Of a stretch of 64,000 bases of DNA, positions 3,598-53,924 are shown in pieces. Under the pieces are notes generated by a model, which was not told where the DNA came from, did no database searches, and worked only from the letters and a program-made list of their open reading frames with translations. The stretch comes from Plicaturopsis crispa FD-325 SS-3. Its lineage: Eukaryota > Basidiomycota > Agaricomycetes > Amylocorticiales > Amylocorticiaceae. Every line of letters begins with the position of its first letter. Position 1 is the stretch's first letter. The position numbers were made by a program, and so were the translations under genes. The DNA lies in contig KN832579.1 in assembly GCA_000827205.1 (NCBI GenBank), positions 63,242 through 127,241 of the forward strand, written 5' to 3'.

Positions 3598-4776
3598 ATG
3601 GCCGTTATCTCTTTCTCGACTTTCTCTGCGTATATTGGTGTGGTGAGTGGCCTCATTGCGCTGCTCAGCACCGTCTTTGCCGTGTATTTCTGTCGCTTTC
3701 ATCTACCGAGCACGAGAATCAAACATTTGGAGGACCTGCTCAAAGACACGGAGAGTATCTATAACTCAGGCGTAGAAAGCAATTTACTGCCCTCCCACTC
3801 ATTTCGCAGGGATGCACAGGCTCGCCTAATCTCGTGAGTGTCGCTCTCTTCATACGAATGATGTGGCGCTGATCATATATATATAGCCTGCAGTACGAGA
3901 TGTATCGGCACCGGCAGCGTGCTCATCGTGCGTTCAGCCTCCGCCAGCAATGGGCAGAGTTCTTCAAAGGCTTGTCGTCGGAAATTAATCGCACTTGCGA
4001 TAAGGTCAAAGTGCTCCGCGCAGACGTGAATGTGAGTCCTCGTATTCGAACGTATATACTTAGGACCTCTGATGTACCGTATCTACTCAGGATGCCTGTG
4101 AAGCGGAACGCTTTCATCTGTCGGATGCAAGGATGGTCGGGAGCTACCCGGGAGTGCATGGGGGCAGCCATATGATCGGAAATGGTACGAGAATCCTTGT
4201 GGGCGTCGTATATGCTGCTTACTTTGGTCTCTAGGATTGCAGTTTACCGTCAACTCTGTGAAAGACATTGCTTCCACCGCACTGCCTCCAGTCTCATGCA
4301 GTCAAGGTCAGCCCCACGAGAAGCCAGGAACGTTTACGATCTTGAATAACAGGCGCTTGTATCTAGACTCGGCCGACGAAGAAAGTCCGTCAGACACAAG
4401 CATTACGCTGAAGTCAGACCTCTCTCACGACAAACATGACCTCACCCACCCGTCGTCATTTGGGAACGAGACCGCGCTCAGCACTGCAATCGCTCGCGGC
4501 ATGCGTTCTGCGGGTCTTCGCTCTACTGGCCTGCGCTCCAGGGCCGCTACACATGGGCCTTCATTTGTCGCGCTGGATATCGCGGATTCGTGGCCGGCTT
4601 CTGCGGCGGATGATGTATCGGTTTCTTCAAGTCGCCGAGTTTTGGACGACACTGTCCGAGTAGCGTTCATGAAGGAGATATTTTACTCCTCGCGTGCAGA
4701 TCGATGCTCGCCACAGGACTTGGCCGTGCTCGCGGCAATGCTTCGCATATCGAGAAAGAGCGTGCGTGATCTGTAG
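3598..4776 (+). CDS. HLP-QxEF family protein, copy 1 (338 aa)
   Basis: Exons 3598-3833, 3887-4031, 4091-4184 and 4235-4776 give a 1017-nt open frame. Exon 1 encodes one hydrophobic helix (GVVSGLIALLSTVFAVYF), then FHLPS and a charged helix (RIKHLEDLLKDTESIY). Exon 2 is 145 nt and encodes HRQRAHRAF, QQWAEFFKGLSSEI and a basic helix. The C-terminal 180 residues are Ser/Asp-rich and probably disordered, ending in a short helical stretch (DLAVLAAMLRIS). The single membrane helix and soluble helical region suggest a tail-like membrane protein; topology is not known. The start was chosen because MAVISFSTF matches the N-termini of copies 2, 3, 5 and 7. I do not recognise the family in any named group. 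Confidence 0.75.
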
Positions 4777-5450
4777 GTGCTCGGTAGTTTGTGTCCGTCA
4801 TTTCCTTTACTGACGAGGGTGTCACCTTAGGATAAGTGTCAAGAGATGTATGATGGAGCCAGAATCACATTTGCATGGCGAGCGTTTAGTAACCTCTCGT
4901 AGTGCGATCAAGTCCTGAATGCCCTCATAGCTTCACATCAAAGTCGATGCCGTTTTATCGAAATGTTCGGCGCCCCCGAAGCAGTCAGCTGGAGACATGA
5001 GAAGAGCGTGTCTCGTTCCTCCACTCTATGGACTTCGTCTCTCAGCAGTCAGTCTCTTCGCTCGTCTCGCTTGAATGACTGGCTTTGATCTTGGTGATAC
5101 AGTCGGTAATCGTGAATATGCCAAAGCGTCCGCCGGTCGAAAGAAACGCGCCTCCGAATTGGCCTCATGCAAGGTAATCGAATTCCTGCGCGTGCATATG
5201 ATGGAAATCATGGACATCGAGGATTCATTATCACATACGCGGTACGCTGCACTATTTCATTGTATTCTCCTATCTCTCTCTACATGTGCTGAGCTAGCCG
5301 GCTCGACACAGGAATAAATGGCTGTCGGAGAGGCTGAATGAACACAGTGACTCGTGAAAGTCGAAGGAATTTTGTTTCAAATATCCAACCTGATTGCTGT
5401 AAGCTCTCCGAGCCAGACGTTCAGTGCCGCGCTCATGTACTCACATTTCT
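4777..5450. other. Intergenic
   Basis: Between copy 1 and the secreted protein genes. A small open frame at 5075-5317 (+) has no recognisable feature and is not called. Confidence 0.5.
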
Positions 5451-5758
5451 TCAAGGGAACGGGGGAGGAGCCACAATCGCACAAGCGGCCGAGCATTTCC
5501 CGAGCCCTGCATTGCAGGCGAGGATCGCAGGGGGTGCAGCTGGTGCAACAACGGTGCCAAACGTGAAGCCAGCGCCGGAATAGCACGCCACGGCGAGGCT
5601 GTTGCATCCTTTGGAAAGCGTTGATTCGTGTGATCGGTGACAGAAAAAAAGAACGACTGACCGGTCTGGCACACACCATACGCGACAGGACCCGCAGACG
5701 TGATGGCGGGAAGGGCGACAGCGACAATGGTAGCCGAAATGAGGTGAAGAGGGTTCAT
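5451..5758 (-). CDS. Small secreted cysteine-rich protein, copy a (84 aa)
   Basis: Two exons (5662-5758 and 5451-5608) are joined across a 53-nt intron. The protein starts with a signal peptide (hydrophobic core LISATIVAVALPAITSA). The mature part is about 62 residues with six cysteines, in the order GVCQTGCN, VACY, LACN, KCSAAC, and a glycine-rich GAGFTFGTV core. This matches a small fungal family of unknown function in which SAGPxAYGxCQTGCN is conserved. A second upstream ATG in frame (5773) would add five residues; the paralogue at 6275-6591 supports the start used here. Secretion is inferred from the signal peptide. The two genes are tandem and in the same orientation, so they arose by local duplication. 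Confidence 0.85.
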
Positions 5759-6274
5759 GGTCTGAAATTTCAAAAGGGCGAGTGTGTTTGGGGTGGGTGG
5801 GCGCGCGTTGTGAAAGCGCTGGAGTACTAGTTTGGGCGCTGCTTATACAAATCTGTCGGCGCAGCGTTTAATTTATATGTAGTTGAGAAAGAATAATTGC
5901 AACACGATAAGCAACGCCTCGCGGCCGAAGTTACATACTGAGTCGCTCGGTTTTGGTTTCTACCTTTCCTCATCGGCCAGCAAACTTTTACGCGGAACGC
6001 GTTTTGCAGCTGCGGTCTAATCGCTCATCAACGCGTCACCGATCGTCTTGAGACGCCATGGCCGGCCGACGTTGATCTCGCCACCAGATGCTAACGAGCA
6101 GCGTATATTGTGTAGCAGGCGCCGACACGTACGTATGCTATACCGAGAATCAAGAAGATAAGAGTACAATGCAGCCTACGAAATGAAATCCGCAAGCGCA
6201 ATCAAGGTTTTTTGAACGCCTGCTGGTTAATTAGAAAGTAGACAAAATAAGCAATAAATGATGCTCGCCTTCCT
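5759..6274. other. Intergenic, promoter side of secreted protein a
   Basis: No gene is recognised. It should carry the promoter of copy a and the 3' end of copy b. Confidence 0.5.
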
Positions 6275-6591
6275 TCAAGGAGTCGGGGCGAAGAGCGCGA
6301 CGGTCGCGCAGGTGGCCGAACAGGTGCCGAGGGCTGCGTTGCATGCAACGAGCGCGGCAGGGGTGGCTGCAGCTGCAATGACGGTGCCGAAGGTGAAGCC
6401 GGCGCCGGCGTAGCAAGCTACGGCGAGGGTGTTACAACCTAAGACGAATGTGAGTCAAGGCGATCGATGAGCGTGTGCAGAAGAGACGACTCACCGGTCT
6501 GGCATAGACCATATGCTAGGGGTCCCGCCGACGTGACGGCGGGAAGGGCGGCGACGATGAGGGCCGTGGAAAAGAAGCGGGTGGGGTTCAT
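6275..6591 (-). CDS. Small secreted cysteine-rich protein, copy b (86 aa)
   Basis: Exons 6495-6591 and 6275-6438 flank a 56-nt intron at exactly the same codon as in copy a (the Gly of QTGCN). The signal peptide core is FFSTALIVAALPAVTSA. The mature protein keeps the six cysteines (GLCQTGCN, VACY, VACN, TCSATC) and the GAGFTFGTV core, ending ALFAPTP. It is clearly a paralogue of the gene at 5451-5758. Function unknown; an extracellular role is likely. Confidence 0.85.
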
Positions 6592-7766: not shown

Positions 7767-8516
7767 ATGACCGCCGTCGACACCGACGCGTTCGCATCCT
7801 TCGCCACCCTCGTCGGCGTGATCAGCGGACTCGTCGGGATCCTGACCTGCCTCTACGGGCTCTTCTTCTGTATCTGGCACCTCCCCGACGCGCAGTACCG
7901 CCAGCTCGAGGAGGTCCTGCGCGAGACGGACGACTATTATCGGTGGGCGATCGACGACGGCGCTCCTGATAAGGACCTTGCCGCAGTTCGAGAGGAGCTT
8001 GGCGCGTACGTTCGGCCGGGGGACACTGGGGGGGAGGATGCAGGTTTGCTAATGGTTATTCGCAGGATTTTGCACGAGGCGCGTGAGCTGCGTATCCGTG
8101 CGCACCGCGCGGTCGGTCACTGGCAGCAATGGGCTGAGTGTGTGAAGGGTCTTTCGTTGAAGATATACCGTCTGCGATATCGAACGCGGGTACTGCGTGC
8201 GCGAATCATGGTGTGTGGCTCTCTATCTATCTTGCTATGTATAAGATCGATTAAATAATCCAATCCTCCTCCTTGCTTCCAGGATCTCGAAGAAGACGAT
8301 GACGCGCCCGTAACCGACATATGGAGCCGCGCCGCTGGGCCTGGTCTGCCGCTATCCGTGTACCGCTATAACGAGCGCACGCCTGGCCATGTAGCTCCCG
8401 CGGATAGCAGCGAGACCTTGGTCTCGTCCAGGGAGATGGATGATAAGATGGATGACAAGGGGTGTTGGACGGATGGGGAGGATGATGTGGGGCTGGAGGG
8501 TGATGGTGCGATTTAG
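7767..8516 (+). CDS. HLP-QxEF family protein, copy 2 (205 aa)
   Basis: Exons 7767-8005, 8066-8210 and 8283-8516 give a 618-nt open frame. Exon 1 carries the hydrophobic helix (LVGVISGLVGILTCLYGLFF), WHLPD and the helix QLEEVLRETDDYY. Exon 2 (145 nt) carries RAHRAVGHWQQWAECVKGLS and a basic helix; the usual Phe of QWxEF is Cys here. The short C-terminal exon starts with DLEEDDD and is acidic and probably disordered. It is closest to copy 3 in exon 1. Function unknown. Confidence 0.8.
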
Positions 8517-9367: not shown

Positions 9368-9650
9368 CTACGACCGCCGTGCAGCCTTCTCCCTGATCAT
9401 CGCGTCAGACGCCTTGCTCTCGCCCCACCCGAGCCAGCTGATCCACCCCGCCTTGCCCTCCTCGTCCTTCGCGTCCGCCCGCCCCACCGCGTTATCCACC
9501 CGCCCCGCCGCGTTATCACCGCGACTCTCCACCCTCGACCTCTCCGCGCCCCACCTCGCCTTCTGCGCATCCCACTCGCCCGCAAACTCTGATTTCGCAG
9601 ACTCATAGTCCACTTTGGACGACTCGTACGATTGTTCATGGTTAACAACC
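9368..9650 (-). pseudogene. Truncated duplicate of the mitochondrial-type gene at 11034-12004
   Basis: Reading down the minus strand from about 9650, QSYESSKVDYESAK then FAGEWDAQKARWGAERSRVE and GWISWLGWGESKASDA follow the C-terminal exon of the gene at 11034-12004 almost residue for residue. The membrane anchor, presequence and first half are absent, and no start signal or upstream exon was found. It is therefore a 3'-exon relic, in opposite orientation to its parent and lying between HLP copies 2 and 3. Confidence 0.8.
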
Positions 9651-9898: not shown

Positions 9899-10603
9899 AT
9901 GACTGCCACCATGGATGCCGCAGCGTTCACATCATTCTCTACCCTAGTCGGCGTGATCAGCGGGCTGGCCGGGATCCTGACGTTCCTCTACGCCATCTTC
10001 TTTTGCAGCTGGCATCTCCCAGACGCACAATACAAGCAACTCCAAGACACTCTACGAGAAACGGAGTGGTACTACGAGCGCATCGGGCAGGCCGTGCCTA
10101 ACGGCCTCGTAAATGAGCTTTCCTCGTGCGCCAACTTACAAAACTCCTTCGATTTTTGCTCGGCCTCTCACAGCTGGCACAGGATCCAGAGCGAGGAGCG
10201 CAGACTGCACACCCGTGTCCATCGTGCCGTTAGCCACTTGCAGCAATGGATGGAGTTCATCTGGGGCCTCTCGATTGAGTTATACCATCTGCGCTACAGA
10301 GCGCGAATGCTGCGCGCTCGACTCACAGTGCGTCGCTCAAAATCCATCCCACTGACTCTAGTTTCGGTTGGGCTGATGCGATGGTCTCCGCCTCTCTTTC
10401 CTCGTGTCTAGGGTTTCGTGCAAGCTGACGAGCGTCTGGTCATAAACACACGCCAGGGAAGTGCCGTAGGGCCCGACCCGCCGCTAGAGGTCCACCGACA
10501 CATACCTCCTGCGATGGCGACCGGCTTCCCTCCTAAGCCGTATCGCTTTGGAAGGGAGTTGAAGGATCCTGATTCCCGTAGGCGGAGAGCCACTGCCAGG
10601 TAG
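9899..10603 (+). CDS. HLP-QxEF family protein, copy 3 (187 aa)
   Basis: Exons 9899-10125, 10183-10327 and 10412-10603 give a 564-nt open frame, the same total as copy 5. The first intron is 57 nt with no stop in frame, so an unspliced reading also stays open; the 145-nt second exon shared with other copies supports splicing. The protein has the hydrophobic helix (LVGVISGLAGILTFLYAIFF), WHLPD, QLQDTLRETEWYY, then RVHRAVSHLQQWMEFIWGLS. The C-terminus is short and basic (FGRELKDPDSRRRRATAR). Function unknown. Confidence 0.78.
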
Positions 10604-11033: not shown

Positions 11034-12004
11034 ATGTTCCGCACACAAGCAATCCGTCCCCTCGCAGCCCGCTTCCCCGCCGTACGTACCGCCCCATCGT
11101 ACTTACTTTCACCTGACTAGTCATTAATGTGATGTTATAACACACAGGCGTCGCGAGCATACTCGATCCCCCCACCCCCATCCGGCCAGCCCACACGCGA
11201 ACCCCAAGGGGGCGGGAGCACATGGCTCTACGCCACCGCCTTCACCTTGCTCGCGGGTGGCGGCGGGTACTACTACTTCACGCAGACGCCCAGCGGCGAG
11301 CGCCTCGCGCGCAAGGCCAAGGCGGACGAGGAGCGCATTGTCGCGAGCGCGAAGGACCTTGGGGCGAGCGCGAAAGACCTGGGGAAGGCGGGCAAGGCGC
11401 GCGCGGAGGACGCGAAGGCGCAGACGGAGGAGAAGTTTGGGGAGTATAAGGTGCGCTTCCTTCCTTCTTCTTACACTCTCTTAGCCTTCGATTAAACGTT
11501 GTTAATTGTGGGTAGGCCGCGAGCAAAGACAAAATCGACGCCCTAACGTCCGACGCGCGTAAACGCTTCGAGGCAGCCGAGAAACAGCTCGCAGAGGTGC
11601 GTGCGCGCGGGGAGTCGGCCGCTGTTGGGGCGCGCGACGCGGCGGAGCGGCAGTACGAATCCACCAAAGCGGACTACGAGCACGCGAAAGCCAAGTTTGC
11701 GGGGGAGTGGGATGCGCAGAAGGCGCGGTGGGGCGCTGAGAGGTCGAGGGTCGAGGGGCGGGTCGATAACGCTGCGGACAATGCGAAGGCGCATGCGGAC
11801 AATGCGAAGGCGCAGGCAAACAACGCCGCAGGGAGGGTAGACGCGAAAGTACAGGAGGGGAAGGAGGAGGGCAAAGCGGGCTGGTTCAGCTGGCTCGGGT
11901 GGGGCGAGAGCAAGGCGTCTGACGCGAAGCGGGGTGCGGCGGGGAAGGTCGAGGCGGGGGCGGAGGATGTTAGGGAGGGGGCGAGGGATGTGAGGCGGTC
12001 GTAG
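11034..12004 (+). CDS. Mitochondrial-type single-pass protein with a long Ala/Lys/Glu helical region (279 aa)
   Basis: Exons 11034-11081, 11148-11450 and 11516-12004 give an 840-nt frame. The N-terminus (MFRTQAIRPLAARFPA, then ASRAYS) is Arg/Ala-rich without acids, as in a mitochondrial presequence. One membrane segment follows (LYATAFTLLAGGGGYYYF). The rest is an amphipathic, LEA/apolipoprotein-like region with repeats such as KAHADNAKAQANNAAGR, and a conserved end GWFSWLGWGESKASDAK. Fungal proteins of this layout are often annotated as calcofluor white hypersensitive protein; I infer membership from memory of the layout. An inner- or outer-membrane mitochondrial location is likely. A 3'-exon copy lies at 9368-9650. 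Confidence 0.8.
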
Positions 12005-13163
12005 GAGAAGGCGAGGCGGTTGGAGATGTAAAATATTGCTTAGTATGAATGGATAACCGCCTGTTGTTCTGCATCTTGCCTGCGTGGATGCAGTTGGCGA
12101 CGGTAGAGTAGCGCGCAAATCGAACAAGGAAATAACGCACGGGACTCACTGCATGGATTACAGTTGTAAGTCACATATACATTTTACCAATACACCCGTT
12201 CGGTTCTTCACGTCCCTTGGCTTCGGGGCTCCATAATCCCCGAGTACGCAGCCCGCGAGGAGAATCGGTAATCTGCTACATACACTAGCCAGTGGCCATA
12301 CAATTCGGTGCCTTACAACATGGAAGTATAACAAACATGTATAACTGCGGACCTGAGTAGAGTCAGTGCAAGTTCGGACTTCACAGACGGAGCGCTCACC
12401 ATTTAGGGTATTCAGGATTTAAATTCGGGACACTCGACGGCGTCGTATACGCGTGTATCATTCATGGCCGTCGTAATAAACACCCCGCGCCGCATAGGGG
12501 TGCGCGATCATCCTACTGCTAGTTCCGTCGCAGATACCTGAAACAAAAAGCGCATTGAAGAGTTCAAAACAAAGTCAGTGATGAGGATGGGTAGCATGGG
12601 CGGAGAATCATGAGTACCTTCCCTGCTTTCCCGATCCGACGACGAATCTGTGAGCGAGATAAAAGTGATCAAGGACTGAGGGATACATGCATGATGTGTC
12701 GGCATTGCTTCCGTCCGCATAGGGCAAAGGAGGGTATGAGTCCTCCAAGTGTGTGGACATCAACGGTGTGTCTACGTGAGTCCCCTGGGTCAGAAATCCA
12801 CGACTGAGACTGTATGATATGTCCACGTACCTCGTTGCTCTCACGGGCCTATGGATGGTCTGCAACGCTCGGAAGTGGAGTCGTAGTATAGTATTCCTGT
12901 CGGCGCATTAGCCCTATGTAAGCGTCATAAGTATTGCAGATGCAGGCGCACAAGCAGGTGCCCGTGTCTTCCTCGACGTGCGCCATATTTCTTTCGTGCG
13001 ACGAGCCCCGGAAGAAGAGGATCCATTGGGCCCGGATACCAATATTAATTGCACGATGAACATGTCTGCTGTGTCTCTCCGCGAAGCCTGCATCAATACT
13101 GTATTCTCAACTTGCATTCTACTTAACAGCCTGAGCCTGAGAGTGAATAGAAGGCATACGCAC
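12005..13163. other. Intergenic with decayed 3' sequence of HLP copy 4
   Basis: No intact gene. The stretch 12430-12545 resembles 17005-17110, which lies just downstream of copy 6 on the same strand (shared blocks such as CCGTCGTRATA and CCTACT...TCGTCGCAG). This fits a decayed copy-6-like gene whose 3' flank survives here. Confidence 0.45.
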
Positions 13164-13324
13164 GTGTTCAGTTCGTCCCGGATGTCCACCGAGGCCAGTG
13201 GACCGAGTGATAGAGTCCCTCCGTGCGTTGATGAGCGTGCACTCGGAAGGTGTGCGAACGAGCGAGACACCGCAGCGAGTATTCCGCTGATGACGCCGAT
13301 GATAGTGGACGATGCTTCAGACAT
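13164..13324 (-). pseudogene. HLP-QxEF family relic, copy 4
   Basis: From 13324 the minus strand reads MSEASSTIIGVISGILA, then FAHLPSAR and later DIRDEL, the family exon 1 pattern. The exon is 161 nt instead of 224, lacking 63 nt that should encode the charged helix after HLPxAR, yet it still ends in phase 2 at a GTGCGT donor. The expected exon 2 cannot be read: a plausible acceptor follows, but the frame stops after about 14 codons and no QxEF motif appears. I call it a decayed copy; a very divergent functional gene is less likely. Confidence 0.5.
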
Positions 13325-15879: not shown

Positions 15880-16583
15880 CTACAAGGCATCATCAGCTTC
15901 CACATATCGAGAATAATATGGGCAATGCATCTTACGATCTGACATCGGTCTCGCAGTCTGCATAGAGCGGACACCCTTATCCGGTGCCGGCCAAGAGATC
16001 GTCTTTCGTGGCAGGTCATTCAATTCGACGCCGTCATGCACGTCGATTACGATCCCATTCTCGCCTTGCAGGAGATCCTAGGCGAGGTGTAAACCCTGTG
16101 TAAGCTACTGTGCAAAAGGATAAAAAGAGGTACGCACGATCATTCGCGCGCGAAGAGCCCGTGCTTTATAGCAGCTGTATTCAATCTCGAACGACAGGCC
16201 CTTGAAGAATTCGGCCCATTGCTGCCAATGGGCGACAGCACGGTGGGCACGGTAGCGCAGCCCGCACGCCTCGCGTCTAATACTTTTCCATACGCAAGCG
16301 CACGAGGGGATCAGCGACGTAGATATGATAACGATGTCACATCCAAAGGGACATACACAGATAGCTCGGCTTGAAGGTCCTTGTCCTCCCTGGCCCGACA
16401 ATACACCTCCGTCTCGCGCAGAAGCTCATCCAGCCGCCGGATCCGTGCGTCGGGTAGATGCGAGCAACAAAAGAGTGTAGCGTACAGGCAGCCTAGGATG
16501 CCGATGAGTGCGCTGATCACGCTGATAATGGTTGAGAATGATGTGAATGCGGTGCCGGCCCCATCGCTCGCGAGCGGGGACAT
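15880..16583 (-). CDS. HLP-QxEF family protein, copy 5 (187 aa)
   Basis: Exons 16357-16583, 16138-16276 and 15880-16077 give a 564-nt open frame. Exon 1 encodes IISVISALIGILGCLYATLF, SHLPD and RRLDELLRETEVY, and ends in phase 2. Exon 2 is 139 nt, two codons shorter than the usual 145, and encodes RYRAHRAVAHWQQWAEFFKGLSFEI. Exon 3 begins DLLQGEN, echoing DLEED of copy 2, and ends ADDAL. The same total length as copy 3 points to a common ancestor. Function unknown. Confidence 0.78.
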
Positions 16584-17271: not shown

Positions 17272-18260
17272 TCACCGCGTCACCTGTAGCGAAATCAATT
17301 TGTTTAAAACGCTACGCCCCAAATGAGACGAGCAGAAACCCTCACAGATGAAGGTCGACGCGTAGGGAGTCAACGATTCATTATCGTCCTCCGTACAAGA
17401 CTGGCTTGTACACGACGAGTGACTTCCAATAGATATAACCCAGTCTGTGGAGTCGTCTATCCTATGGGGCTTTAGTCATGATTTGTAGCGATACGATCGA
17501 GCGAGGACTTACCATCGGACAGGCATTCGGAAGGCGGTCTACCGGGGATGTCAGGCCCAGAAGGTCGCTCGGGCGACAAAGACAGTACAGAAGCTGCATC
17601 CGATACTAAATGTCAAGCACCCCTGTATGCAGGCTGGGTAACTGAACGTACTGTTGGAATGTGCACTGTGGCCACCAGTTGAGAAGGAGCGACCACCCGA
17701 CATGGTCAATGCGATGTCCAAGTCTTCTATTGCGCGACGTTCGATAGCTTGATGTGCCTGACAATATCCGGAAGTGAGCACCACGCAACTGGAATGTCGT
17801 ATGACTAGCATGTTGTAATCACCTTTAATTGCATATTCACGCGCTGAACGAGCTTGAAGGTACGGTCGATGGCCATCGACGTTCCCCGTGCGAACTCTAG
17901 CCACTGGCGAGACAGGGTAGCCCTGGCGACGCGTCGTCGATGCCGTGCCATTCTCGTAGCGATGCTGGAATCGACCATAGAGAAACGTAGTCAGTAAGGG
18001 TGACGGGAAACGGGAAACGGGGTACGGTGGTCTCACATAGATAGTTGTTCGTGTATATCGTCTCGCACAAGGTGAAACCACGCAGGGTCCTCCTCGATGA
18101 TCAAGAGATACAGGGCTTCAGTTTCGCGGTATAGATCCTCGAGGCGTTCGAGGCGGGCAGTCGGTGAATATGCGTGGCCTATAGCGTGGACAGTCGCACA
18201 CGACATGTCCACAATCCCTACCGTTGCAGAAATGGCCGTCGAGAATGATAGAGGCAACAT
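17272..18260 (-). CDS. HLP-QxEF family protein, copy 6 (249 aa)
   Basis: Five exons (18037-18260, 17823-17964, 17652-17757, 17513-17605, 17272-17456) give a 750-nt open frame with introns of 46-72 nt. The first helix is less hydrophobic than in other copies and the HLP motif is replaced by AYSPTARLERLEDLYRETE. Exon 2 (142 nt) encodes RHRRRVARATLSRQWLEF followed by ARGTS. Exon 3 begins near AIERR, as in copies 8-12. The C-terminus is Ser-rich with a cysteine cluster (SHSSCTSQSC, then FICEGFC). Membrane insertion is doubtful because of the polar residues in the first helix. The last two exon joins are the least certain. Confidence 0.65.
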
Positions 18261-19835: not shown

Positions 19836-20635
19836 CTACCTGATCGCCCTTGCCGTCCCTCCGGACGCCCAGAGCCTCGTCCAAACGAAGCCGGAAAGGC
19901 CACCACCCGCCAGTCGTACGAGCGCGGCTGGAGGGTGGCTACGAAGCTCTGCAATGGCGAGGCGAGGGGGAGGTCGTGGAAGATGCGATGATGAAGACGG
20001 GGAAGTGCCGCGCTCGGCAGAGGGGGGATGAAACGAGGACGCACCGCCGGATGTCGCGTATGGTTCAGGGACAGTCCAGCTTGCCGGACCGTTGGGACGG
20101 CGTCGCGCGTTGGGTATTGGAATGATCTCCGCTGCGGGAGGCGGCTTTGCGTATGACATATTAGTGGGGTCGCGTATGCGATAAAGTGTCGGCTCACCTG
20201 TAACCGTACGTGGACCCGACGCAGCCTAAAGGCGGTAAGGCTGATGGCGAATGACAATCCGCGTGTGAATTCAATCCATTGCGCGTACATACTCGTCGCT
20301 GCGTCGACACGTATTCGATGTCTGTCTCGCTGCGCCGCGATGCTAGAGAAAGAAGGAAATAGTTAGCCAACGCGAACGTCGCGGAATCGGGGAAGGCGCA
20401 CTCACGTGGATAGTTGCGCGCGGATGTCTTCCCACTCGAGCTGGAACCGCGCTGAGTTTTCTTCGACTGCGGAGAGATAGGCCGCCTCTGTCTCGCGCAG
20501 TGAGCTCTCCAGGCGGTCAAGGTGGGTGTGCGGGAGGTAGGAGTAGCAGATGGCCAGGAAGGCCATGAACAGCCCGGTCGCGCCAGCGATGATGCCGACA
20601 ATCGACGTGAATGTCGCGTACGCTTGGGCTGTCAT
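19836..20635 (-). CDS. HLP-QxEF family protein, copy 7 (227 aa)
   Basis: Exons 20406-20635, 20198-20342 and 19836-20144 give a 684-nt frame. Exon 1: IVGIIAGATGLFMAFLAICY, then YLPHTHLDRLESSLRETEAAY (a YLP variant of HLP). Exon 2 (145 nt): RHRIRVDAATSMYAQWIEF then TRGLS. The C-terminal exon is Pro/Ser-rich (PPPAAEIIPIPNARRRP, later SSSSHLPRPPPR) and likely disordered. A run of 15 G (20681-20695, C on the coding strand) lies about 45 bases upstream of the start. Function unknown. Confidence 0.78.
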
Positions 20636-33723: not shown

Positions 33724-34933
33724 GGGGGTGAGGGGGTAATGTCTGCATACCCTCCTCGCCATTTTATGGTATTCTGTATGCGTGGCGCGCCCCCTTTGCG
33801 CTCGCCGCCGTGTTGTCTCGTCTGATCTTATCACAAAGGGTTCTGTGGTTGTTTCCCTTGTCACTCGTTTGTATCCCCTAGCTCCCTTTCTCGCTGTATC
33901 CTGTCCTCTCCTTTGTTACGCGCTGGTCGCCGTCTGTTGCGTACGATTATCTGTTATCGATTATTACCGTGCCTTTGCTAGCATCATGTTGTCGTCCTCG
34001 TGTTTACTTTCCATGTATTGCCGGATACCCTCATGTGCATCCATACCCTCATTCAATACAGAGAATGTTCTACCCTAGTTTGTTGCCCTATGGGCGTTGA
34101 GAACGTTGAGAGACATAAAGCACGGAGCGGTACGCCGCATGTGCGTTCGAAGACTTCGTATGAATGTCGCAAAGCGGAACGTGTGCGTCTGCTAGGCCAT
34201 CCGCGACGGGAGACAAAGGCTGCCGCAGCAGATCGAACTGTAAACTGTGAACGAATGCATTTCATCAATACTTCTTTCTACTTGCATCTCCTTTATACAC
34301 TGTATAGAACGACTGCTCGCATGCAAAATTCAATCCGTCGCTGTGGCGTTCACGAATCCGACACGGCGCCAGAGTGCCACAACGTCGCGGTCAATGGCTA
34401 CACCTATCAAGTAAGATGAATCAGGTGAAACGTCAATACAGTGAAGCTAAAATAAGTAGAGCACCGTACCGCAGTTCCTGGATGTTGTGTGCGCAGGATG
34501 CAGGACATGGCCCACAAGATCACCGAAACTGGAATCTGGCAGCGTGCTCAATTTCACCCGTGCTGCCACGCACTTGGGTTAATAATGGGACGGGCTCGAT
34601 AGCGGGGCAGCTAAGTTGGAGGATAAGCGTCAGGGGAGTATATGACAGACGACATAGCGGTGGCGCGTACTTTCCCTTGTCGTGCGTCGCGCAATTTCGT
34701 CGCTTACATCTTCGGTGAGCTCGCCGAATTGATACCTCATGAGCTTCATGAGATTGGGCATTTGCGTTTGGTACGCAGGGCCTGGAATCGTCGCATGTCA
34801 GCAATTTGGGGCATTCACAGACCGGGGGACACACACTTAACCCGGTATATGCCATTCCAGAGAGATATCGGTCGTACGTGGCGTGGTGAGCACTCTCGGG
34901 CCAGCGTGACAGAGACGGTGTCCCGGCGCGCAC

Positions 34934-34974
34934 ACTTGCAACACGAAGGACTGCCAGTCTTTCGTGTTGCAAGT
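34934..34974. repeat. Hairpin-forming inverted repeat (19-bp arms, 3-nt loop)
   Basis: ACTTGCAACACGAAGGACT is followed by GCC and then its reverse complement with one mismatch. It lies in an intergenic stretch. It could be a foldback remnant or a structured RNA precursor; no larger element borders were seen. Confidence 0.8.
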
Positions 34975-36307
34975 CCTTCACCCTAGATGCCATGTCCGAC
35001 GACACGTATCTCTACGTGTAAGATATTGCACAAGATTCTTTCCTGTACAATGGGACACCTTGGGTCAGTAAGTGGATGAAAAGCGGAGTATGGATTTCAC
35101 GCACCTTGTCCATTCTCTCGATTGCGACTTCGATAATTGTCGTCTGAGCTCGCCTTAGGCCTCACCGCTTGCCTCCATTCATAGGCAAAAGGGTGCTGTA
35201 GACCTAGGAAAGAGAGGAAAGCAGGGATATCCGGGTGACGAAGATGATGGTTTGGGTGCAAAGTTCTTCGGCGCTTGCGGCTTCAGCCACCAGCCACCAG
35301 CCGCATTGGCGCGCGACACGGTTCTCTGCCTCGTTCCACGCCGTCCTCGAGATTTTTACCCGTACTCGTCGCATGACTCGCATCATTTCCTCCAGTTGGT
35401 CGCGTTAGGCCCTCTTGGCTATCTACAGAAGAAGTATAGAACACAAGACGCGTCGTCTCGTAGCGCTAAGGGCGGGTTTGCATTGGCAAAGGTCAATTGA
35501 CGACGATGGACGTGTCTTCGGTAAATTGAACAGGTCTGTGGTGAGTTCGCATCTATATTGTGCTGATATTAAGTCCTATTGTCATTTCGTCAAGCAGGTT
35601 CTCCGATCTTGCGAGAACATCGTCCGGCGGCCTGAAGACGATTCGCTATATGTCACGAACTCCGTGAGGCATCACAAAGGTCCACAAGGTCACTGCCGCT
35701 CGCCATAGGCTTTTCGCCCTTGCATGCAGGTCTGAGGTCAACGTTTCAACCGTGTCCTGGAACGCGACGCGACGAGTTTTTGGAGACCTCGGCGGCCGGT
35801 ACGTACCTATTTCTGACACGTACGGCAACTGTTGACCTTAAGGCTTACCACAAGTCGTTTCGTCAGTCATCCTCGCGTCATCGCCTGTAAGTACGACTCG
35901 GTACGAGCGGCATTCAGCATGCTGCTTCAGTGACAATCCGGTGTAGTGTTTACCGGGGCACTTCACGCGCCACTCCCCCGCGCCCCAAAGTAAATACGAA
36001 GTGGACTCGCTACCAAAGCTGCGGAAAGCGTATGCTAAAACGTGAGTACGCCAGGCTTGAGCTCTGTACATGCCTCGAAACATCTGACTTGCAGCCCGCA
36101 CACAATTGAAGTTCACAATTACCCCCAAAAACTGTTGTGCAACCCACGGTGCGACGCAAGACATTCCAGACCTTGGAGACTCTCCTCGATTTCCCCAACC
36201 AGTTTTGTGCGTTACCGGGGAGGTACTCTCAACTCTCAGGTTGTCGGCAATCGTACGACTCGTACCCCGCCATTTTTATCACAGGTGGCAATAGCGAGAG
36301 ATCAATC

Positions 36308-36351: not shown

Positions 36352-36449
36352 GTTTTGCCACCGTTCTTAAGACCTCCTCAAAACCTGCAACGTATCTTCC
36401 ATCCAGCCTCCTTCATATTTTCCACCACCTTTCATCCTACGTATTCGAA

Positions 36450-38385: not shown

Positions 38386-39352
38386 CTAGACTCTTGCTGG
38401 CATGGGATCATTGGGTCCCTTCCCTTTACGGGCTCCTCTGCGGCGGAGATGCTTGTCAGGAAGGTGCGTGTCCGGGTCTTCGCTGTCGTCTTCAACCTCT
38501 ACGCTTCGATCCGTTTCGCGTTCGTCGACAGAAGGACCATGCAACGCGCTATCCTCCCCAGGTGGTGGCGGGAGGGAAGATGCATCAAGACCCTCCGATG
38601 TGGGCTGTACGGCGGAGGACATGCGAGGCGTGTCGTGCACGTCCAGTAGCTCGGAAGGTGCTGCGGTATCTCTCGGTATGTCGCTGCTCGACATGGCAGC
38701 GGTAACTGCCAATGGCGTCGCATCTACAAAAAGTGGGATGAGCCATCTTGACGGCGACGATAGTCACTCTAGACGTGACACGCACAAATTCCATCATGGC
38801 TGCCCAAGGGTGCTTCATACAAGATGGGATGTCGTTCTATCGCATCCTAGACGCCGACAGATGAATGTCAAGGATGTTCAAATTCCACGATGCCAGAGCT
38901 CACTCACGACTAGTCCTATCCGTATACGTTCGACCTCACGAGACGTGTGCCCGATAGAGGATGAAAGGCCGCGGAGGAACTCTTTGTATTGTGCGAGAAG
39001 GGACGCTGCGCGATAAGTACGCCGCCGATACATATGTGCGTCGGCGCGCACGCTAAGTAGGATACATATGTCAGCAAGATTCAAGGCGCCAGTGAACCAC
39101 CATTCAGGACACAAGTCGAGGCACTCACTTTACGAGGCGCCTCCGTACATCTGCCGCAATTACTTGATCAGGAAGGCAGTCTTCTTCGATAGCGTCGTGT
39201 AGCATATCTTGGACCTCCTGTATAAGCTCATCCAGCCGACGAAGCCTCGCGCGTGGCAGATGAGCGCGATACGAAGCGAGTCCGATGACGGTGAATGTAC
39301 CGGTCACGACCCCAGCGACATTGGCAACAGATGATATCCACTCACTGGCCAT
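38386..39352 (-). CDS. HLP-QxEF family protein, copy 8 (255 aa)
   Basis: Exons 39129-39352, 38908-39052, 38786-38846 and 38386-38723 give a 768-nt frame. Exon 1 (224 nt): MASEWISSVANVAGVVTG then FTVIGLASYRAHLPRARL and RRLDELIQEVQDML. Exon 2 (145 nt): MYRRRTYRAASLLAQYKEF then LRGLSSSI. Exon 3 begins DAIERHPILYEA. The C-terminal exon is Ser/Glu/Asp-rich (DERETDRSVEVEDDSEDPD) and ends in a basic RRRGARKGKG. It starts the second cluster, in which QY replaces QW of copies 1-7. Function unknown. Confidence 0.8.
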
Positions 39353-39891: not shown

Positions 39892-40993
39892 CTATTGCAT
39901 GCGATAGGGACGCCGTTTGGACGTTTGCGAAGATTTCGCAAAGCCGTGTGTGCTCCGTCTGTCGCGAGTCGCGAGTAGAGTCTTGTGGAAGCCGCGTAGG
40001 ACGTCGTTGATACCGATTCTGGAGGACGGAGCTTCCTCGGACTCCCGTCCAGGATCTGGCACAAGCTCTTTTTCCTGAGAAGACCACGAGTATTCGTCCA
40101 CGTATATGGCTCCAGAATCGCCGGCTGCAGGCGGTATGGTGCTGCTTCTTCCGGGCGACGGTGGCACGTAAATCGTATCGTCCTCTCTTGCATCTACACG
40201 CGCCGTGTGGGTCTCGGACGATGGTGCGGTGGCGGAAATGCCGTTCATATTGGGGGTGTGCTGATCATGTGGTGTAGGAGAAGGAGGGCTGGGGATGCCT
40301 TCTGCAGTGTTCGACGTCACATGTGTAGTCCCAGGCAGCGCAGAGGCAGGTCTCAGCGCGATCTCATCTAGAAAAATGAATGAGTGATCATGCGAGGGAA
40401 ACGGTGGGATAAGCGACACGTACGTATTTCACCTTGCCTAGGCAGTGACACAGTGCATTCGACGCGTCGTAGTTCTATCGCATCCTAGACAACGATGAAT
40501 ACGCGCTCGCAAAGAAATGAGATACGAAGCACTACTCACGACCAACTTCATTCGTATGCTCTTGACTTCATTGATTGTGCGTCCAATGGAGAACGAGAGG
40601 CCACGAAAGAATTCTCCGTATTGTTTGGGGAAGTTCGATGCGCGATAGACACGTCGTCGATAGATATGTGTATCGGCGCGAACACTAAACAAAAACTGCA
40701 CATATGAGCATTCTTCGGCCACTGACCAGGACAAACTACCGCTGAAGCCACTTACTTGACGAGGCGCCTGCGTACATCCTCGACGATCACCCAATCAGGA
40801 AGACAGTCCCCCTCGGTAGCGTCGTTTAAGATATCTTGTGTCTCCTTGATCAACTCATCGAGCCTTCTGAGCCTCGCGGTGGGCAGATGTGAACGACACA
40901 AGGCAAATCCAAGGATCGCAAATACTCTATACCAGACCCGATGCCGACGAGATTGGCGACAGATGAGACTCCGTCGCTGGCCACGAGCGACAT
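39892..40993 (-). pseudogene. HLP-QxEF family, copy 9, with a frameshift in exon 1
   Basis: Apart from one lesion the gene is whole. Exon 1 (40756-40993) is 238 nt, one base short of keeping the family phase: MSLVASDGVSSVANLVGIGS is in one frame and VFAILGFALCRSHLPTARL in another, with the break near 40921-40932 inside the hydrophobic helix. Exon 2 (40540-40684) is 145 nt with YRRRVYRAS and KQYGEFFRGLS. Exon 3 (40433-40484) is 52 nt (DAIELRRVECTVSLPRQ), the same length as in copies 11 and 12. Exon 4 (39892-40367) is Pro/Ser/Glu-rich and ends KRRPYRMQ. The rest of the frame is open, so the mutation is recent, or it is a sequence error. Confidence 0.72.
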
Positions 40994-41385: not shown

Positions 41386-42297
41386 TCAAAGGCTCCAGTC
41401 GAAGAGCTCAGACCGCGACGTTGTCAGCTGGTCACTGACTGCCCAATACTGGTTACGTCCGTCGTACGGGGGCGGCGGGCTTGCTGATTGAGGACTGGGC
41501 GGTCGGCCTCGTGGACCTATCGTCGCAGGTACTGGCTGCGGTGAGCCTTGCACAGACATATGACGCCATAGAGCGTCGTTAAACTCTGCAGGCGATGTCA
41601 ATTGGGTGCTTATCGTCTCGGATTTCACGCTCTCCGTAGCCATAGTCGATGCCGAGGTGTGTACAGACACTGGGAGAATGCGGAGCCAATCAATATTCTT
41701 GCGCTTTGACGGCCAGGGTGAGACGTACACGAGTCCTGAGCATCCGTCGGGTAGTCTGAAATCCCGCCATTCCTGGTCGTTGTCATATGCAAGATACGAT
41801 GTCTTTCGATAGCTTCCTGTAATATCCGGCGTGAGTAAGCTCCAGTCGTTGATGACACCCGAATACGCAGCTCACGATTAACAGACCGCGTATGCATCTC
41901 GTCTCATGTGACGTACGGCTTATCGCAAACGACAGCCCGCGAAAGAATTCGACGTACTGTTTCACAAACGTCGGTGCGCAGTATGCCCTGCGCCGGTGCG
42001 CGAGCGCCTCTGCGCGAAGCCTGACGCGGGGAATTGAGCAGGCGCTAATCACGAGCAAGGGACGTATACCTACACAGCAATGCGGCGTTGCATATCGTTC
42101 TGAAACTGCGCGTCCGGAAGGAGTGCTTCCTCGATGGCGATGTCGTAAATGGCCTCCGTCTCGTCCAGGATGCCCTCGAGGTGTTTATACATCTCGCTGG
42201 GGAGGTGTGCGCGGTAGAGCGCGATGCCGAGTAGAGTCAAGCAGCCGGTCGTGATTCCCAGGAGATTCGCAGAGGATGAGACAGGCGTGTCGTCCAT
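41386..42297 (-). CDS. HLP-QxEF family protein, copy 10 (246 aa)
   Basis: Exons 42074-42297, 41876-42020, 41729-41816 and 41386-41669 give a 741-nt frame. Exon 1 (224 nt): MDDTPVSSSANLLGITTG then LTLLGIALYRAHLPSEMY and HLEGILDETEAIYDIAIEE. Exon 2 (145 nt): HRRRAYCAPTFVKQYVEF then FRGLSFAI. Exon 3 begins EAIERHRIL. The C-terminus is Ser/Thr/Pro-rich (RGRPPSPQSASPPPPYDGR). Its exon 1 is nearly the same as that of truncated copy 13, on the other side of the fumarate reductase B/dipeptidase pair. Function unknown. Confidence 0.8.
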
Positions 42298-42892: not shown

Positions 42893-44080
42893 CTACCGAG
42901 CACGGTAGGGGCGGCGTTGGGCGCTCTGCGAAGGCTTTCCGCGGGGCCAGATGAGAATGTTGTGCTCCGGGTCCAGCTCCACCGCTGAAGACGACGCTGC
43001 CGCCTCTTGTTCTCTGGGTAAGTCGAGCTTTCGTCCCAGTGGTATTTTGTCGTCCCATTCGATCGCGGGATGCAGCGCCGCCCTCCTCCGCGTACTTTTC
43101 GGCCGCCGTCGTGGTGGCAACCCCTCTTCTTCCTCGTCCGGCACTGCAACCTTCCGATTTTCGGACCCCATCGGTCGGCTGAGCCCTCTCACGGGCATAT
43201 GTAACAGGCTGTCTAAGGCGATCTCATCGCTCGTGGCTCTACGCCCAGCCTGAGACTCGTCGTCGGCTGGAACGGAGAGAAACACGCTGGGCACATCCGA
43301 GTCGGGCGATGCTGGTTGCGAGTCGTCGTCAGGAAGCGGGATCCTGGCTTCAGGATGCAAGGTCGCGGGGAAGGGGAGACTGTTCAGACTTGGCAAGGCG
43401 TAGTCGGCTGGCGTCCGAGACGGCAGAGCTTCGGCCGTATTGATCGTGGGCGCCCCGCGCAATGTGCGTAAACGCATTGAGTCTTCTGCATCTACAAACT
43501 AAACAATCCGTACATATATAGTCCTAGATGCCCTAGCCACGTACCAGTCTGGTCCTGCGGTACCATTCCTTCGACGCGCCGGCGGTCTATCGCCTCCTGG
43601 ACAGCAGATAAATCTCAGAACGTCGCAGCTCGTTGAAACGCGCTACTCACCGTCAGGTCTATCCGTATGCACTCCGCTTCGCGGCACGTGCGCTCAATGG
43701 ACCAGGAGAGGCCCCGCAGGAACTCGCGGTATTGCGTGGCGAACGACACCGCGCGGTACGTGCGCCGCCGATGCTCGTGTGCATCGTCGCGCACGCTGGA
43801 GTTGCGCATGCGCATCAGTGACACGGACGACAGAGCGATTACAACACACTGCGCACCTGTGAAGGCGCCTCCGTATGTCCTCCCGAGCCGCTAAATCAGG
43901 GAGGGTGTTTTCCTCAATGGCCTCGTCCAGAGACTCCTGCGTCTCTTTGATCAGCTCGTCGAGGCGTTTGAGCCTCGCGTTAGGGAGGTGATTGCGGTAG
44001 AAGGCGAATCCGAGGAGGGCGAGTATGCTGGTCGCGATGCCGGTGATGTTGGCCGTGGAGGAGACCCATTCGCTGCTCAT
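42893..44080 (-). CDS. HLP-QxEF family protein, copy 11 (339 aa)
   Basis: Exons 43857-44080, 43651-43795, 43545-43596 and 42893-43491 give a 1020-nt frame. Exon 1 (224 nt): MSSEWVSSTANITGIATS then ILALLGFAFYRNHLPNARL and KRLDELIKETQESLDEA. Exon 2 (145 nt): HEHRRRTYRAVSFATQYREF then LRGLSWSI. Exon 3 (52 nt): EAIDRRRVEGMVPQDQT. The long C-terminal exon has LRTLRGAP, an acidic DDDSQPASPDSD, a basic RRRPKSTRRRAAL, and ends QSAQRRPYRAR. It is very close to copy 12 throughout, but the AT-hook region of copy 12 reads SRPMGSENRK here. Function unknown. Confidence 0.82.
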
Positions 44081-50292: not shown

Positions 50293-51434
50293 ATGAGTAG
50301 CGAGGGGGTCTCCTCTACGGCCAACATCATCGGTATCGCGACCGGCATATTTGCCCTCCTTGGATTCGTCTTCTACCGAGACCACCTCCCTACTGCGAGG
50401 CTCAAACGCCTCGACGAGCTGATCAAGGAGACGCAGGAGTCTCTAGACCAGGCTGTAGAGGAAAACACCCTCCCTGATCCCTCGGCTCGGGAGGACATAC
50501 GGAGGCGCCTCCGCAGGTGCGCAGTGCTTCGTAACCACTCGGTCGTCGGTGTTGCTGATGCGCATGCGCGGCTCCAGCATACGCGACGATGCGCACGAGC
50601 ATCGGCGCCGCACCTACCGCGCGATGTCGCTCGTCGACCAGTACCGCGAGTTCCTGCGGGGCCTCTCCTGGTCTATCGAGCGCACGTGCCGCGAAGCGGA
50701 GTACATACGGATGGACTTGACCGTGAGTAGCACGTTGTAACAGGCTGCGGGGCTCCTAACATTTAGTCACCGCTTTCGTCTAGGACGCGATAGACCGCCG
50801 GCGCGTTGAAGAATTGTTACCGCTGGACAGGACAGGTACGTGTCGAGCACATCGACGACTGTATGCACGGACTGTTTTTTTTTTGGATGTAGATGAGACA
50901 ATTCGTTTGCGCCCAGCGCGCGCGGCGCCCACGATCCACACAGCCGACCACGCCCTGCTCAATCTGAACAGTCTCTCCCTCCCCGCGACCTTATATCCTG
51001 AAGCCAGGATCCCGCTTCCAGACGAAGACGACTCCTTGCCAGCATCGCCCGACTCGGAAGTGCCCCGCGTGTATTTCTTCGCTCCATTCGACGAACAACC
51101 CCAGGATGAGCACGGATCCAGGAGCGAAGAAGCCGTTCTCGACAGCCTATTGGAGGTACCTAAGAGAAAGCGCGGCCGACCGAAGGGGTCGAAGAATAGG
51201 AAGCCTACAGTGCCGGACGAAGAAGAGGAATACGCGCTGAAGCGTATGCGGAGGAAGGCGGGGTTGCCTCCCGGCAGCGAGCAGATGCCGCTACTGCGGC
51301 CGCATCGCAAAACCAAAGAGCGCGAGGCGGTAGCGTCGTCGTCAGCGATCGAGCTCGACCACGACATGCTCCAGCGGCCCACCGACGAGACACCCGCGAA
51401 GTCCTCGCAGCGCCGTCCCTACCGCGCTCGGTAG
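50293..51434 (+). CDS. HLP-QxEF family protein, copy 12, with an AT-hook-like motif (320 aa)
   Basis: Exons 50293-50516, 50578-50722, 50784-50835 and 50893-51434 (224, 145, 52 and 542 nt) give a 963-nt frame. Exon 1: MSSEGVSSTANIIGIATG then FALLGFVFYRDHLPTARL and KRLDELIKETQESLDQA. Exon 2: HEHRRRTYRAMSLVDQYREF then LRGLSWSI. Exon 3: DAIDRRRVEELLPLDRT. The C-terminal exon has RLRPARAAP, acidic DEDDSLPASPDSE, then KRKRGRPKGSKNRKP, which contains the RGRP core of an AT-hook flanked by basic residues. It ends SSQRRPYRAR. A membrane helix plus a DNA-binding motif would suit the nuclear envelope, but this is inference. Confidence 0.83.
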
Positions 51435-51865
51435 GCGTTCCTATCCACTCGTTCCGTGCGCTATTTCAGATCTTTTGATGGAATGTGCTGGGATGGAGGA
51501 TGGATGCACTATGTAAGGGAGCGGATACGCCCTGGATTTATTAGGTGAAGTCCTGTCCGCTCTCATCTACGTCATAAATACTTATGAGGGGCTCCATCGA
51601 ACAGTATATTGTACTTGTACGTTCTGGTATGAAGAACTACCTGGATAGAATGGGATGCTTGAAAGACAGCTTGCGAAGATCTACTCCCTCTGCCCCCCTG
51701 CATACACACAACTTGTACTATACAGGTGACGCAGTGTGGGCTCTGTTAATCATTGCTCAAACGATCACTCACTAACACTCATCCTCAAACCAGGCGAATC
51801 GTGCTCGTGCCCTACGCCTTGGATGTGCATACATAGGACTTTGGTTGGCATCGTATCCCGTCATC
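51435..51865. other. Intergenic with shared 3' block
   Basis: Contains the block shared with 42690-42840 (inverted) and 49730-49880, and near 51725 a stretch matching the inverted sequence around 42450. Confidence 0.6.
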
Positions 51866-52042
51866 ATCGACGACACGACCCGCCCAACTCATCGTGCTCT
51901 ACCGCACGCACCTTCCTAGCGCGATGTATAACCATCTCGAGGGCATCCTGGACAAGACGGAGGCCATCTACGACATCGCCATCGAGAAGGCGCTCCTTCC
52001 GGACGTGCAGTTCCAGAATGTCATGCAACGTTGCATTGCTGT
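51866..52042 (+). pseudogene. HLP-QxEF family, copy 13, truncated exon 1
   Basis: The sequence follows exon 1 of copy 10 closely (LYRTHLPSAMYNHLEGILDK, then EAIYDIAIEKALLPDVQFQN). The ATG is ATC here (51866-51868), 47 nt of the hydrophobic helix are missing, and the 5' splice site after the final GCTGT is GCATGT instead of GTAGGT. No exon 2 follows. It is a dead copy. Confidence 0.85.
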
Positions 52043-52776
52043 GCATGTATGCACCCCCTCGCTCGTGATTGGCGCCGCACCATCGGGGCTGCTGTGCGCG
52101 CCCCTTAGGTTGGATTCTGCTGGTATGTTCAGGTCAGCCACGTCCGGGATTGCTTCGTGCGCCGCCTGTTCGTCCGCTCCGTCGTTAGTGGTGTCATTCA
52201 ATGTTGTGGCCTTTCACGCATTGAAGACGAGCTACAGTACCGCTGTCCGCTGTCGCTTTCTAGCCACCGTCGGGCGCTAGAAGGCGCTCCTTGCGACGCT
52301 ACTCCAGCCACAATCTTCCCAGTCTTGGAGCTGTTCGGTGAGTCCTTCAACTACCCTCTTCAAGACGATCCTGATGAGCAGCAATGCAAAGGGAGGGCTA
52401 TGCTGTGATGCGTCAAGGACGGCAATTATTTCACTAATTTGGCTGGAGTGTCGGGTCCCCGGTATGTCGATTACTTTTTGAGGAGGTCTTCTCGGGAGCC
52501 AAAGGTCATCAGGTCGTCATTGGCTCGGGCAAATTCATTTACGGTAATCCTGCTCCTCGTAATTGTCAGGTTTTCCTTCGGGGAACGTGCTGCGGGTCCC
52601 ATCTCGGGAGTAGCTGCTCTAATAGTGTTTTCACTGCTTTACAGAATTTTGGATACGCACAGTTTGTGTGGTTGCAGTGTGGACGTCGCACAGCATATGA
52701 GCGAACATCAGCGCTCACCTCAGTTCTTAAGCCCTACGCCCGCCCATGCGCGTGTATATCGTCCATGCCGACCCCC
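52043..52776. other. Intergenic
   Basis: Downstream of dead copy 13 and upstream of copy 14. No exon 2 of copy 13 and no other gene is seen. Confidence 0.5.
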
Positions 52777-53924
52777 ATGAGTAGCGAATGGGTCTCCTCC
52801 ACGGCCAACATCACCGGTATTGCGACCGGCATACTTGCCCTCCTTGGATTCGTCTTCTACAGAGACCACCTCCCCACTGCAAGGCTCAAACGCCTCGACG
52901 AGCTGATGAAGGAGACGCAGGAGATCCTCGACGAGGCCGTCGAAGAGGATATCCTCCCTGATCTAGCAGCTCGGGAGGACATACAGAGGCGCCTTCGTTG
53001 GTACGTAGTCTGTCGTGATTGCACGGTCTTTGGTATCGCTGATGAGCGTGCACAACACCAGCGTGCGCGCCGATGCGCACGAGCACCGGCAGCGCACGTA
53101 CCGCGCGGTGTCGTTTGTCAAGCAATACCGCGAGTTCCTGCGGGGTCTCTCCTGGTCTATCGAGCACACGTGCCGCAAGGCGGAGCGCATACGCATCGAC
53201 CTGACCGTGAGTAGCGCGTTTTAATGGGGTTCGGGGCTCCTCGTGTTCATCTGTTGCTCTTGTCCAGGATGTGATAGATCGCCGCCAGCGCGTGGAGGAT
53301 TTGTTTCCGCAGAATGGATCTTGTACGTGTCATGTAGATACCTGGTTGTGTCTGTGTGGATTGCTTATTTTATGGACAAAAGACAATGCTATGCGTTTGC
53401 GCCCAATGCCTTCGTCCACACTTGCGGCGCCCGCTAGCGTACCCAGTGCCAACATAGCACAAGCCTCTCCATCGGTTCCATCTCTCGAGCCAACGCACTA
53501 CGCCATGCCCAATCTGAACGGTACCTCGCTCTTTCCTGAGCTAAGACTCCTCTGCCGGATGAAGATGGTAACGAGCTAGCTTCGGCGGAGCAAGAAGGTG
53601 CGGACAAAGAAGCAGCCCCTTAGCCTATGATCATACCTAGATTATACGGACGCCCGCTGGACGACATCGACACGGTGATGGAACTGTTCAAAGCTATGGA
53701 CGCCATGGAGGTCCCATCTCGAGAGATCGAAGATTTAGCCCGTGACATTCCAATGTCGCGATGCAGCTGTATTGCACGGAGGGAGTATGATGATGAGGAG
53801 GAGTTGGAGTTGTTGAAGGGGTATTGAGCTCGACCTCGCGCACGACATGCTCCCGCAGCGCACCGACGAGACACCAGCGAAGTCCTCACAGAGCACGCAA
53901 CGCCGCCCCTACCGCGCTCAGTAG
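52777..53924 (+). pseudogene. HLP-QxEF family, copy 14, decayed C-terminal exon
   Basis: Exons 1-3 are sound: 52777-53000 (224 nt; MSSEWVSSTANITGIATG, DHLPTARL), 53062-53206 (145 nt; HEHRQRTYRAVSFVKQYREF) and 53268-53322 (55 nt, one codon more than its relatives). Exon 4 opens with NAMRLRPMPSS but stops at 53577-53579; another frame then reads PLPDEDGNELASAEQEGADK, the acidic stretch of the family, and the tail QRRPYRAQ survives at 53924. The last exon has thus been shifted. A 206-residue short form could still be made, similar in length to copies 2, 3 and 5, so loss of function is not certain. Confidence 0.68.

What the first reader, a model, noticed from the sequence alone, without database searches (positions are those of the whole stretch)
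3598..53924. A 14-member, unnamed gene family (HLP-QxEF) with a fixed exon code
Members share exon 1 (224-239 nt in intact copies, always ending in phase 2; hydrophobic helix, HLP, charged helix). Exon 2 is exactly 145 nt in copies 1, 2, 3, 7, 8, 9, 10, 11, 12 and 14, and 142 or 139 in copies 6 and 5. It encodes an Arg-rich helix and Q[W/Y]xEFxxGLS. After it, in phase 0, the C-terminal exons differ freely. Two rigid modules in front of a variable tail, in a locus full of births and deaths, is the pattern of a rapidly evolving recognition or effector family. Nothing in the sequence states the function.
Basis: partly seen in the sequence, partly recalled or inferred. Interest (0 to 1): 0.85.

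Follow-up and report, generated by a model that had tools for sequence, protein, structure and literature searches.

The report
Fungal membrane-protein family with variable tails
A wood-rotting fungus carries a cluster of related, unnamed genes whose proteins seem to share a membrane-anchored bundle of helices but differ in their tails, and a related gene elsewhere may have gained the partner-binding part of a cell-polarity scaffold; it is a real family of unproven function, with nothing yet to mark it as effectors.

Summary
The window (Plicaturopsis crispa) has 14 related copies: 11 with an open exon 1+2 module, one with a frameshifted exon 1, two fragments. Exon 1 is 224-239 nt in phase 2; exon 2 is 145 nt in 10 of 12 readable copies. 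Three public gene models agree. Outside the window, copies lie on contigs C5, C14, C2 (six) and C8 (three); exon 2 is 145 nt in 5 of 7 tested. This is inherited gene structure under purifying selection (module dN/dS 0.14-0.33), not a special code.

The module is predicted as a GxxxG transmembrane helix plus a three-helix bundle, with a disordered, probably cytosolic tail. The tail evolves faster in the one pair measured (0.64), yet tails of the 39-53 kb group remain related. No Pfam family fits.

New: at C5 and C14 the module is followed (in C14 in one open frame) by a Spa2 homology domain (SHD). Besides Spa2, the only other SHD found in the genome is a decayed one inside this array.

Best reading: membrane-anchored adaptors with fast-evolving cytosolic tails (about 0.5). 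Secreted effectors: unsupported. No relatives in other named species were found, but the searches were word-limited.

The parts
3598..4776 (+). copy c1: exon 1 3598-3833, exon 2 3887-4031, then tail exons; public model P0004 (PLICRDRAFT_58489), which starts further upstream and ends further downstream
7767..8516 (+). copy c2: exon 1 7767-8005, exon 2 8066-8210, exon 3 from 8283
9899..10603 (+). copy c3: exon 1 9899-10125, exon 2 10183-10327, exon 3 from 10412
12987..13309 (-). copy c4: decayed fragment with HLP-like and exon-2-like stretches
   Evidence: tblastn
16138..16583 (-). copy c5: exon 1 16583-16357, exon 2 16282-16138 (145 nt) or from 16276 (139 nt)
17823..18260 (-). copy c6: exon 1 18260-18037, exon 2 17964-17823 (142 nt); weakest hydrophobic helix, no GxxxG
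20198..20635 (-). copy c7: exon 1 20635-20406, exon 2 20342-20198
34498..35005 (-). decayed Spa2 homology domain, homologous to the 3' part of the C5 and C14 relatives; contains stops
38908..39352 (-). copy c39: exon 1 39352-39129, exon 2 39052-38908
40540..40993 (-). copy c41: frameshifted exon 1, open exon 2 from 40684 (145 nt)
41876..42297 (-). copy c42: exon 1 42297-42074, exon 2 42020-41876
42893..44080 (-). copy c44: exon 1 44080-43857, exon 2 43795-43651, exon 3 43596-43545, exon 4 43491-42893
50293..51434 (+). copy c50: exon 1 50293-50516, exon 2 50578-50722, exon 3 50784-50835, exon 4 50893-51434; tail holds an AT-hook-like motif (named by eye); public model P0001 (PLICRDRAFT_454387) keeps intron 3
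51890..52076 (+). copy c13: exon-1 fragment without the hydrophobic helix, 85% identical in DNA to c42
52777..53924 (+). copy c52: exon 1 52777-53000, exon 2 53062-53206; the tail frame ends early (at about 53.58 kb) in the public model P0002 (PLICRDRAFT_454326)

Best explanation
A tandemly and dispersedly duplicated family of single-pass membrane proteins that act as membrane-anchored cytosolic adaptors. Shown by sequence: shared exon layout, shared hydrophobic helix with a GxxxG motif in most copies, purifying selection on the module, a faster-changing tail in the pair measured. Predicted: a transmembrane helix (N-terminus outside, C-terminus in the cytosol) that may pair through GxxxG, then an antiparallel three-helix bundle and a disordered tail. 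Inferred: the bundle is a constant dimerisation or docking platform and the tails supply binding motifs, so the module fixes the place and the tail the partner. In the C14 relative the tail appears to be a Spa2 homology domain, which in yeast Spa2 binds motif-bearing RabGAPs and MAP kinase kinases; there the protein would hold such partners at a membrane, alongside or in competition with Spa2.
Confidence: 0.5

Rival explanations
1. Secreted or surface-exposed effectors or recognition proteins whose variable tails face a partner organism or other strains.
For: Tandem array with births and deaths; tail faster than module.
Against: No K/R before the helix and K/R after it in 13 of 13, predicting a cytosolic tail; module constrained; tail ratio 0.64, not above 1, in the one window pair; the species is described as wood-degrading (passage of PMC4503453); the one known tail domain is cytosolic.
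Confidence: 0.1
2. A membrane-active cell-death or incompatibility module of the HeLo/four-helix-bundle kind: the glycine-bearing N-terminal helix inserts and the bundle oligomerises.
For: N-terminal hydrophobic glycine-bearing helix followed by helices; plant NRC3 and NRC4 resistosome chains appear among the fold matches.
Against: No HeLo or other STAND N-terminal Pfam model matched at E up to 10, although HMMER's filters drop weak matches; the fold matches are at the level common to helical bundles; the hydrophobic stretch looks like a standing transmembrane span.
Confidence: 0.1
3. A lineage-restricted family drifting without organism-level function beyond transient retention, duplicated by local recombination.
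For: Fragments and a frameshift; the C5/C14 linker+SHD part has as much amino-acid as silent change per site (0.084 and 0.069).
Against: Module dN/dS 0.14-0.33 in 8 of 8 pairs with a finite estimate, which suggests long-term selection.
Confidence: 0.2
4. A question nested in the best explanation: at C5 and C14 the HLP gene and a small SHD gene are two neighbours duplicated together, perhaps read on one transcript, rather than a fusion.
For: The C5 frame stops before the SHD; homology of the window's decayed SHD begins near an ATG; polycistronic transcripts are reported for this species (abstract and passages of PMC4503453).
Against: C14 reads through in one frame with matching splice phases; of the three gaps between C5 and C14 in exon 3, two are of 6 and 3 nt, the third, of 1 nt, being the frame break.
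Confidence: 0.4

Closest known systems
Spa2/GIT family, N-terminal SHD1 (Pfam PF08518, PDB 6lag)
   Same: The tail of the C14 relative aligns over the SHD1 of a Spa2-like protein (query 28-130 on 6lag 32-146). By the repeat's spacing (my mapping, no yeast sequence aligned), the six groove leucines named in passages of PMC12831199 are L,L,L,M,L,L in C14 and all L in C5.
   Different: Preceded by a predicted transmembrane helix and three-helix bundle; by the same mapping C14 lacks the acidic residue at two contact positions (62, 112) while C5 has both. The rest of Spa2 was not looked for. The window copies have no intact SHD.
HeLo-like and other STAND N-terminal domains of fungi
   Same: Hydrophobic N-terminal helix before a helical domain (likeness from general knowledge).
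   Different: No Pfam match in any protein scanned.
Designed single-chain antiparallel three-helix coiled coils (9rgy, 9rgv)
   Same: Predicted shape of residues 26-125 of P0001.
   Different: A shape likeness only; no descent or function implied.

Membership tests
Spa2/GIT SHD proteins (C5 and C14 relatives) | two SHD repeats forming SHD1 | tested here: met
   GIT_SHD two stretches, E 9.6e-17 for joined C5 pieces and 2.8e-12 for the C14 model; 6lag E 1.5e-11 for the C14 SHD
Spa2/GIT SHD proteins (C5 and C14 relatives) | remainder of Spa2 (coiled coil, C-terminal domain) | not tested
   the duplicated block ends about 0.3 kb after the SHD; not searched further
Spa2/GIT SHD proteins (window copies) | SHD present in the tail | tested here: not met
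   no GIT_SHD match in 11 of 11 tails scanned, some with tentative exon choices; c1 tail versus an SHD profile not above shuffles. The separate SHD at 34.5-35.0 kb is decayed
Secreted effector | cleaved signal peptide and extracellular tail | tested here: inconclusive
   charge asymmetry predicts N-out/C-in; no signal-peptide program was run
Secreted effector | positive selection | tested here: not met
   module 0.14-0.33, one window tail pair 0.64. The C5/C14 linker+SHD part gave 1.24 on few silent changes (8.5) and is not taken as positive selection
HeLo-like cell-death domains | recognised by the family's Pfam models | tested here: not met
   no match at E up to 10 in the 12 modules of A2 nor in the c1, c2, c7, c50 models and P0006-P0008; weak matches may be filtered out
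HeLo-like cell-death domains | kills on membrane insertion | not testable with these tools
   needs expression
Any Pfam family | score above the curated cut-off over exons 1-2 | tested here: not met
   best E 0.00043, DUF7553, in 3 of 12 modules, below its cut-off where both were shown

The most novel reading that the evidence does not exclude
The module is a general membrane anchor in this fungus onto which new cytosolic tails are repeatedly placed, and in one line it captured the partner-binding domain of Spa2, making a natural membrane-tethered polarisome mimic that recruits or titrates the RabGAPs and MAP kinase kinases that steer tip growth and mating.
Probability: 0.2. Interest if true: 0.65.

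Novelty: new variant of a known kind. Interest (0 to 1): 0.4.

Why it matters
If right, it gives an unnamed fungal family a topology, a fold and a testable role, and offers a natural case of a polarity-scaffold domain moved onto a membrane anchor. It also shows that 'conserved N-terminus, variable tail, tandem array' need not mean a secreted effector. If only the family description stands, it is a useful but ordinary annotation.

Tried and rejected
Relatives in other fungi: three protein searches returned P. crispa records (P0001, P0002, P0004, P0006-P0008), one row marked as the window's own (P0009) and two rows of unnamed source (lgn: P0003, by eye nearly the c44 tail; P0005, 95% identical to c1 exon 1). 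The tool needs shared five-residue words, and one search scored only the 7996 candidates sharing most words, so this does not show absence; I recall similar unnamed proteins in other Agaricomycetes but could not test it. Pattern search of the genome: no match, pattern too strict.

c1 tail as a diverged SHD: rejected; in three alignments 69, 31 and 56 of 500 shuffles scored as well, and its profile score lay below that of shuffled sequences. Solved-structure sequence searches of the module: best E 0.41 and 0.3, nothing coherent. Foldseek: 0 of 427 matches at E 0.001 or below, best a focal-adhesion targeting domain at 0.034. SHD-binding motif in family proteins: none. Literature, listings only except as cited: PLICRDRAFT (2 papers), Plicaturopsis crispa with genome (25, 15 listed), Spa2 homology domain with basidiomycete (1), lineage-specific family terms (1), Spa2/SHD terms (5), HeLo terms (4); no listed title or abstract describes this family.

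C5/C14 caveat: silent divergence differs threefold between module and linker+SHD part (0.219 and 0.069), so the parts may have different histories (conversion). The SHD count is a lower bound: it missed the second repeat of C14, which one search finds.

Some window tails were modelled by me without support (c6, c7, c42; for c39 only the last open stretch), so their Pfam scans are provisional.
Full report
What was checked. The finding describes 14 copies of an unnamed gene with two conserved exons. I rebuilt the copies from the DNA. Eleven have an open exon 1 of 224-239 nt ending in phase 2. Twelve have a readable exon 2, of which ten measure 145 nt, one 142 and one 145 or 139 depending on the acceptor. 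Two are fragments (13309-12987 minus; about 51.9 kb plus) and the 41-kb copy has a frameshift in exon 1. Several copies offer other splice choices, so the lengths rest partly on homology. Public models found for three copies use the same junctions, 3 of 3; they also name the organism, Plicaturopsis crispa FD-325 SS-3. One model (P0001) retains a stretch that I read as intron 3.

The layout is older than the array. Searches of the own genome show one copy each on C5 and C14, six places on C2 and three on C8; counts are lower bounds by the tool's own statement. Exon 2 is 145 nt at C5, C14, one C8 and two of four C2 copies, 142 in the other two C2 copies, that is 5 of 7 tested in DNA, each with a phase-2 exon 1 available. 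In a tree of 20 modules the C8, C2 and C5/C14 copies each form one group (C2 with 94/88 support, below the tool's star) and the window copies fall in two sets, 3.6-20.6 kb (with C5/C14) and 39-53 kb, with 5 of 17 inner branches open. So the 'exon code' is conserved intron position in a dispersed family.

Selection. Nine module pairs were measured; eight gave a finite dN/dS, 0.14-0.33, and one (c1/C14) was saturated. For c44/c50 the module has 22 amino-acid to 24 silent changes and the tail 103 to 48 (195 codons; ratio 0.64), Fisher p = 0.015. This confirms a constrained module and a looser tail but not positive selection. It is the only window tail pair that I measured.

The Spa2 link. Behind the module of the C14 copy the frame stays open for 365 residues through four GT-AG introns into two Spa2 homology repeats (Pfam E 2.8e-12; PDB 6lag E 1.5e-11). 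C5 has the same block, 88% identical over 1.8 kb, with no further similarity found in the 9-kb stretches compared, but its exon-3 frame stops before the SHD. A genome-wide search with the SHD model gave six rows: two at what looks like Spa2 itself on C1, one at C14, two at C5 and one in this window at 34678-34746 minus, part of a decayed copy at about 34.5-35.0 kb. The search is a lower bound; it missed C14's second repeat. One free SHD falling by chance in the 50 kb of this array out of 33.2 Mb has a chance of about 0.0015 (my arithmetic, assuming uniform placement). So the HLP family and SHD sequences are linked in this genome, whether as a fusion or as neighbouring genes. SHD1 of yeast Spa2 binds a five-residue motif in Msb3, Msb4, Ste7 and Mkk1 through a leucine groove (abstract and passages of PMC12831199). 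By repeat spacing, C5 has all six groove leucines and both acidic contacts, while C14 has one methionine and neither acidic residue; this mapping is mine and used no yeast sequence.

How it most likely works. A membrane-anchored adaptor: the helix places and perhaps pairs the protein, the bundle is a constant platform, and the tail carries changing partner motifs. The first part is predicted from sequence, the second from models, the third inferred from tail disorder, the tail rate and the SHD case. c50's tail has an AT-hook-like motif by eye; Pfam did not report it and c44 lacks the core.

What is not known. Relatives in other named species were not reached, no RNA data were at hand, and none of 11 window tails scanned has a Pfam domain (some tail models tentative). 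The effector reading is not excluded but nothing found favours it. Interest is moderate: a new, well-anatomised family with one intriguing domain capture, mechanism unproven.

Noticed in passing
32582-33229 (+): HMG-box protein (Pfam PF00505, E 3.2e-13) lying between the two halves of the array.
   Followed up: partly
36449-38077 and 45524-47143: A 1.6-kb duplication, 82% identical; four ORFs from it matched no Pfam family at E 0.01.
   Followed up: partly
60582-60888 and 61945-62251: 307-bp inverted repeat, 97.7% identical, about 1.1 kb apart; possible mobile-element ends.
   Followed up: no
56136-57509 (-): 457-aa ORF over a region with internal repeats (77-88% between stretches) and no Pfam match at E 0.01.
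   Followed up: partly
5440-5717 and 6264-6550: Two similar small genes in tandem (73% in DNA); by eye they encode short proteins with an N-terminal hydrophobic stretch.
   Followed up: no
L031 4114-5990 and L032 4144-6009: A gene-sized block (about 1.8 kb) copied between contigs C5 and C14 with introns kept and no similarity found in the flanks.
   Followed up: partly
9400-9629 and 11653-11927: Inverted-orientation similarity of 84-95% between stretches about 2 kb apart, unexplained.
   Followed up: no
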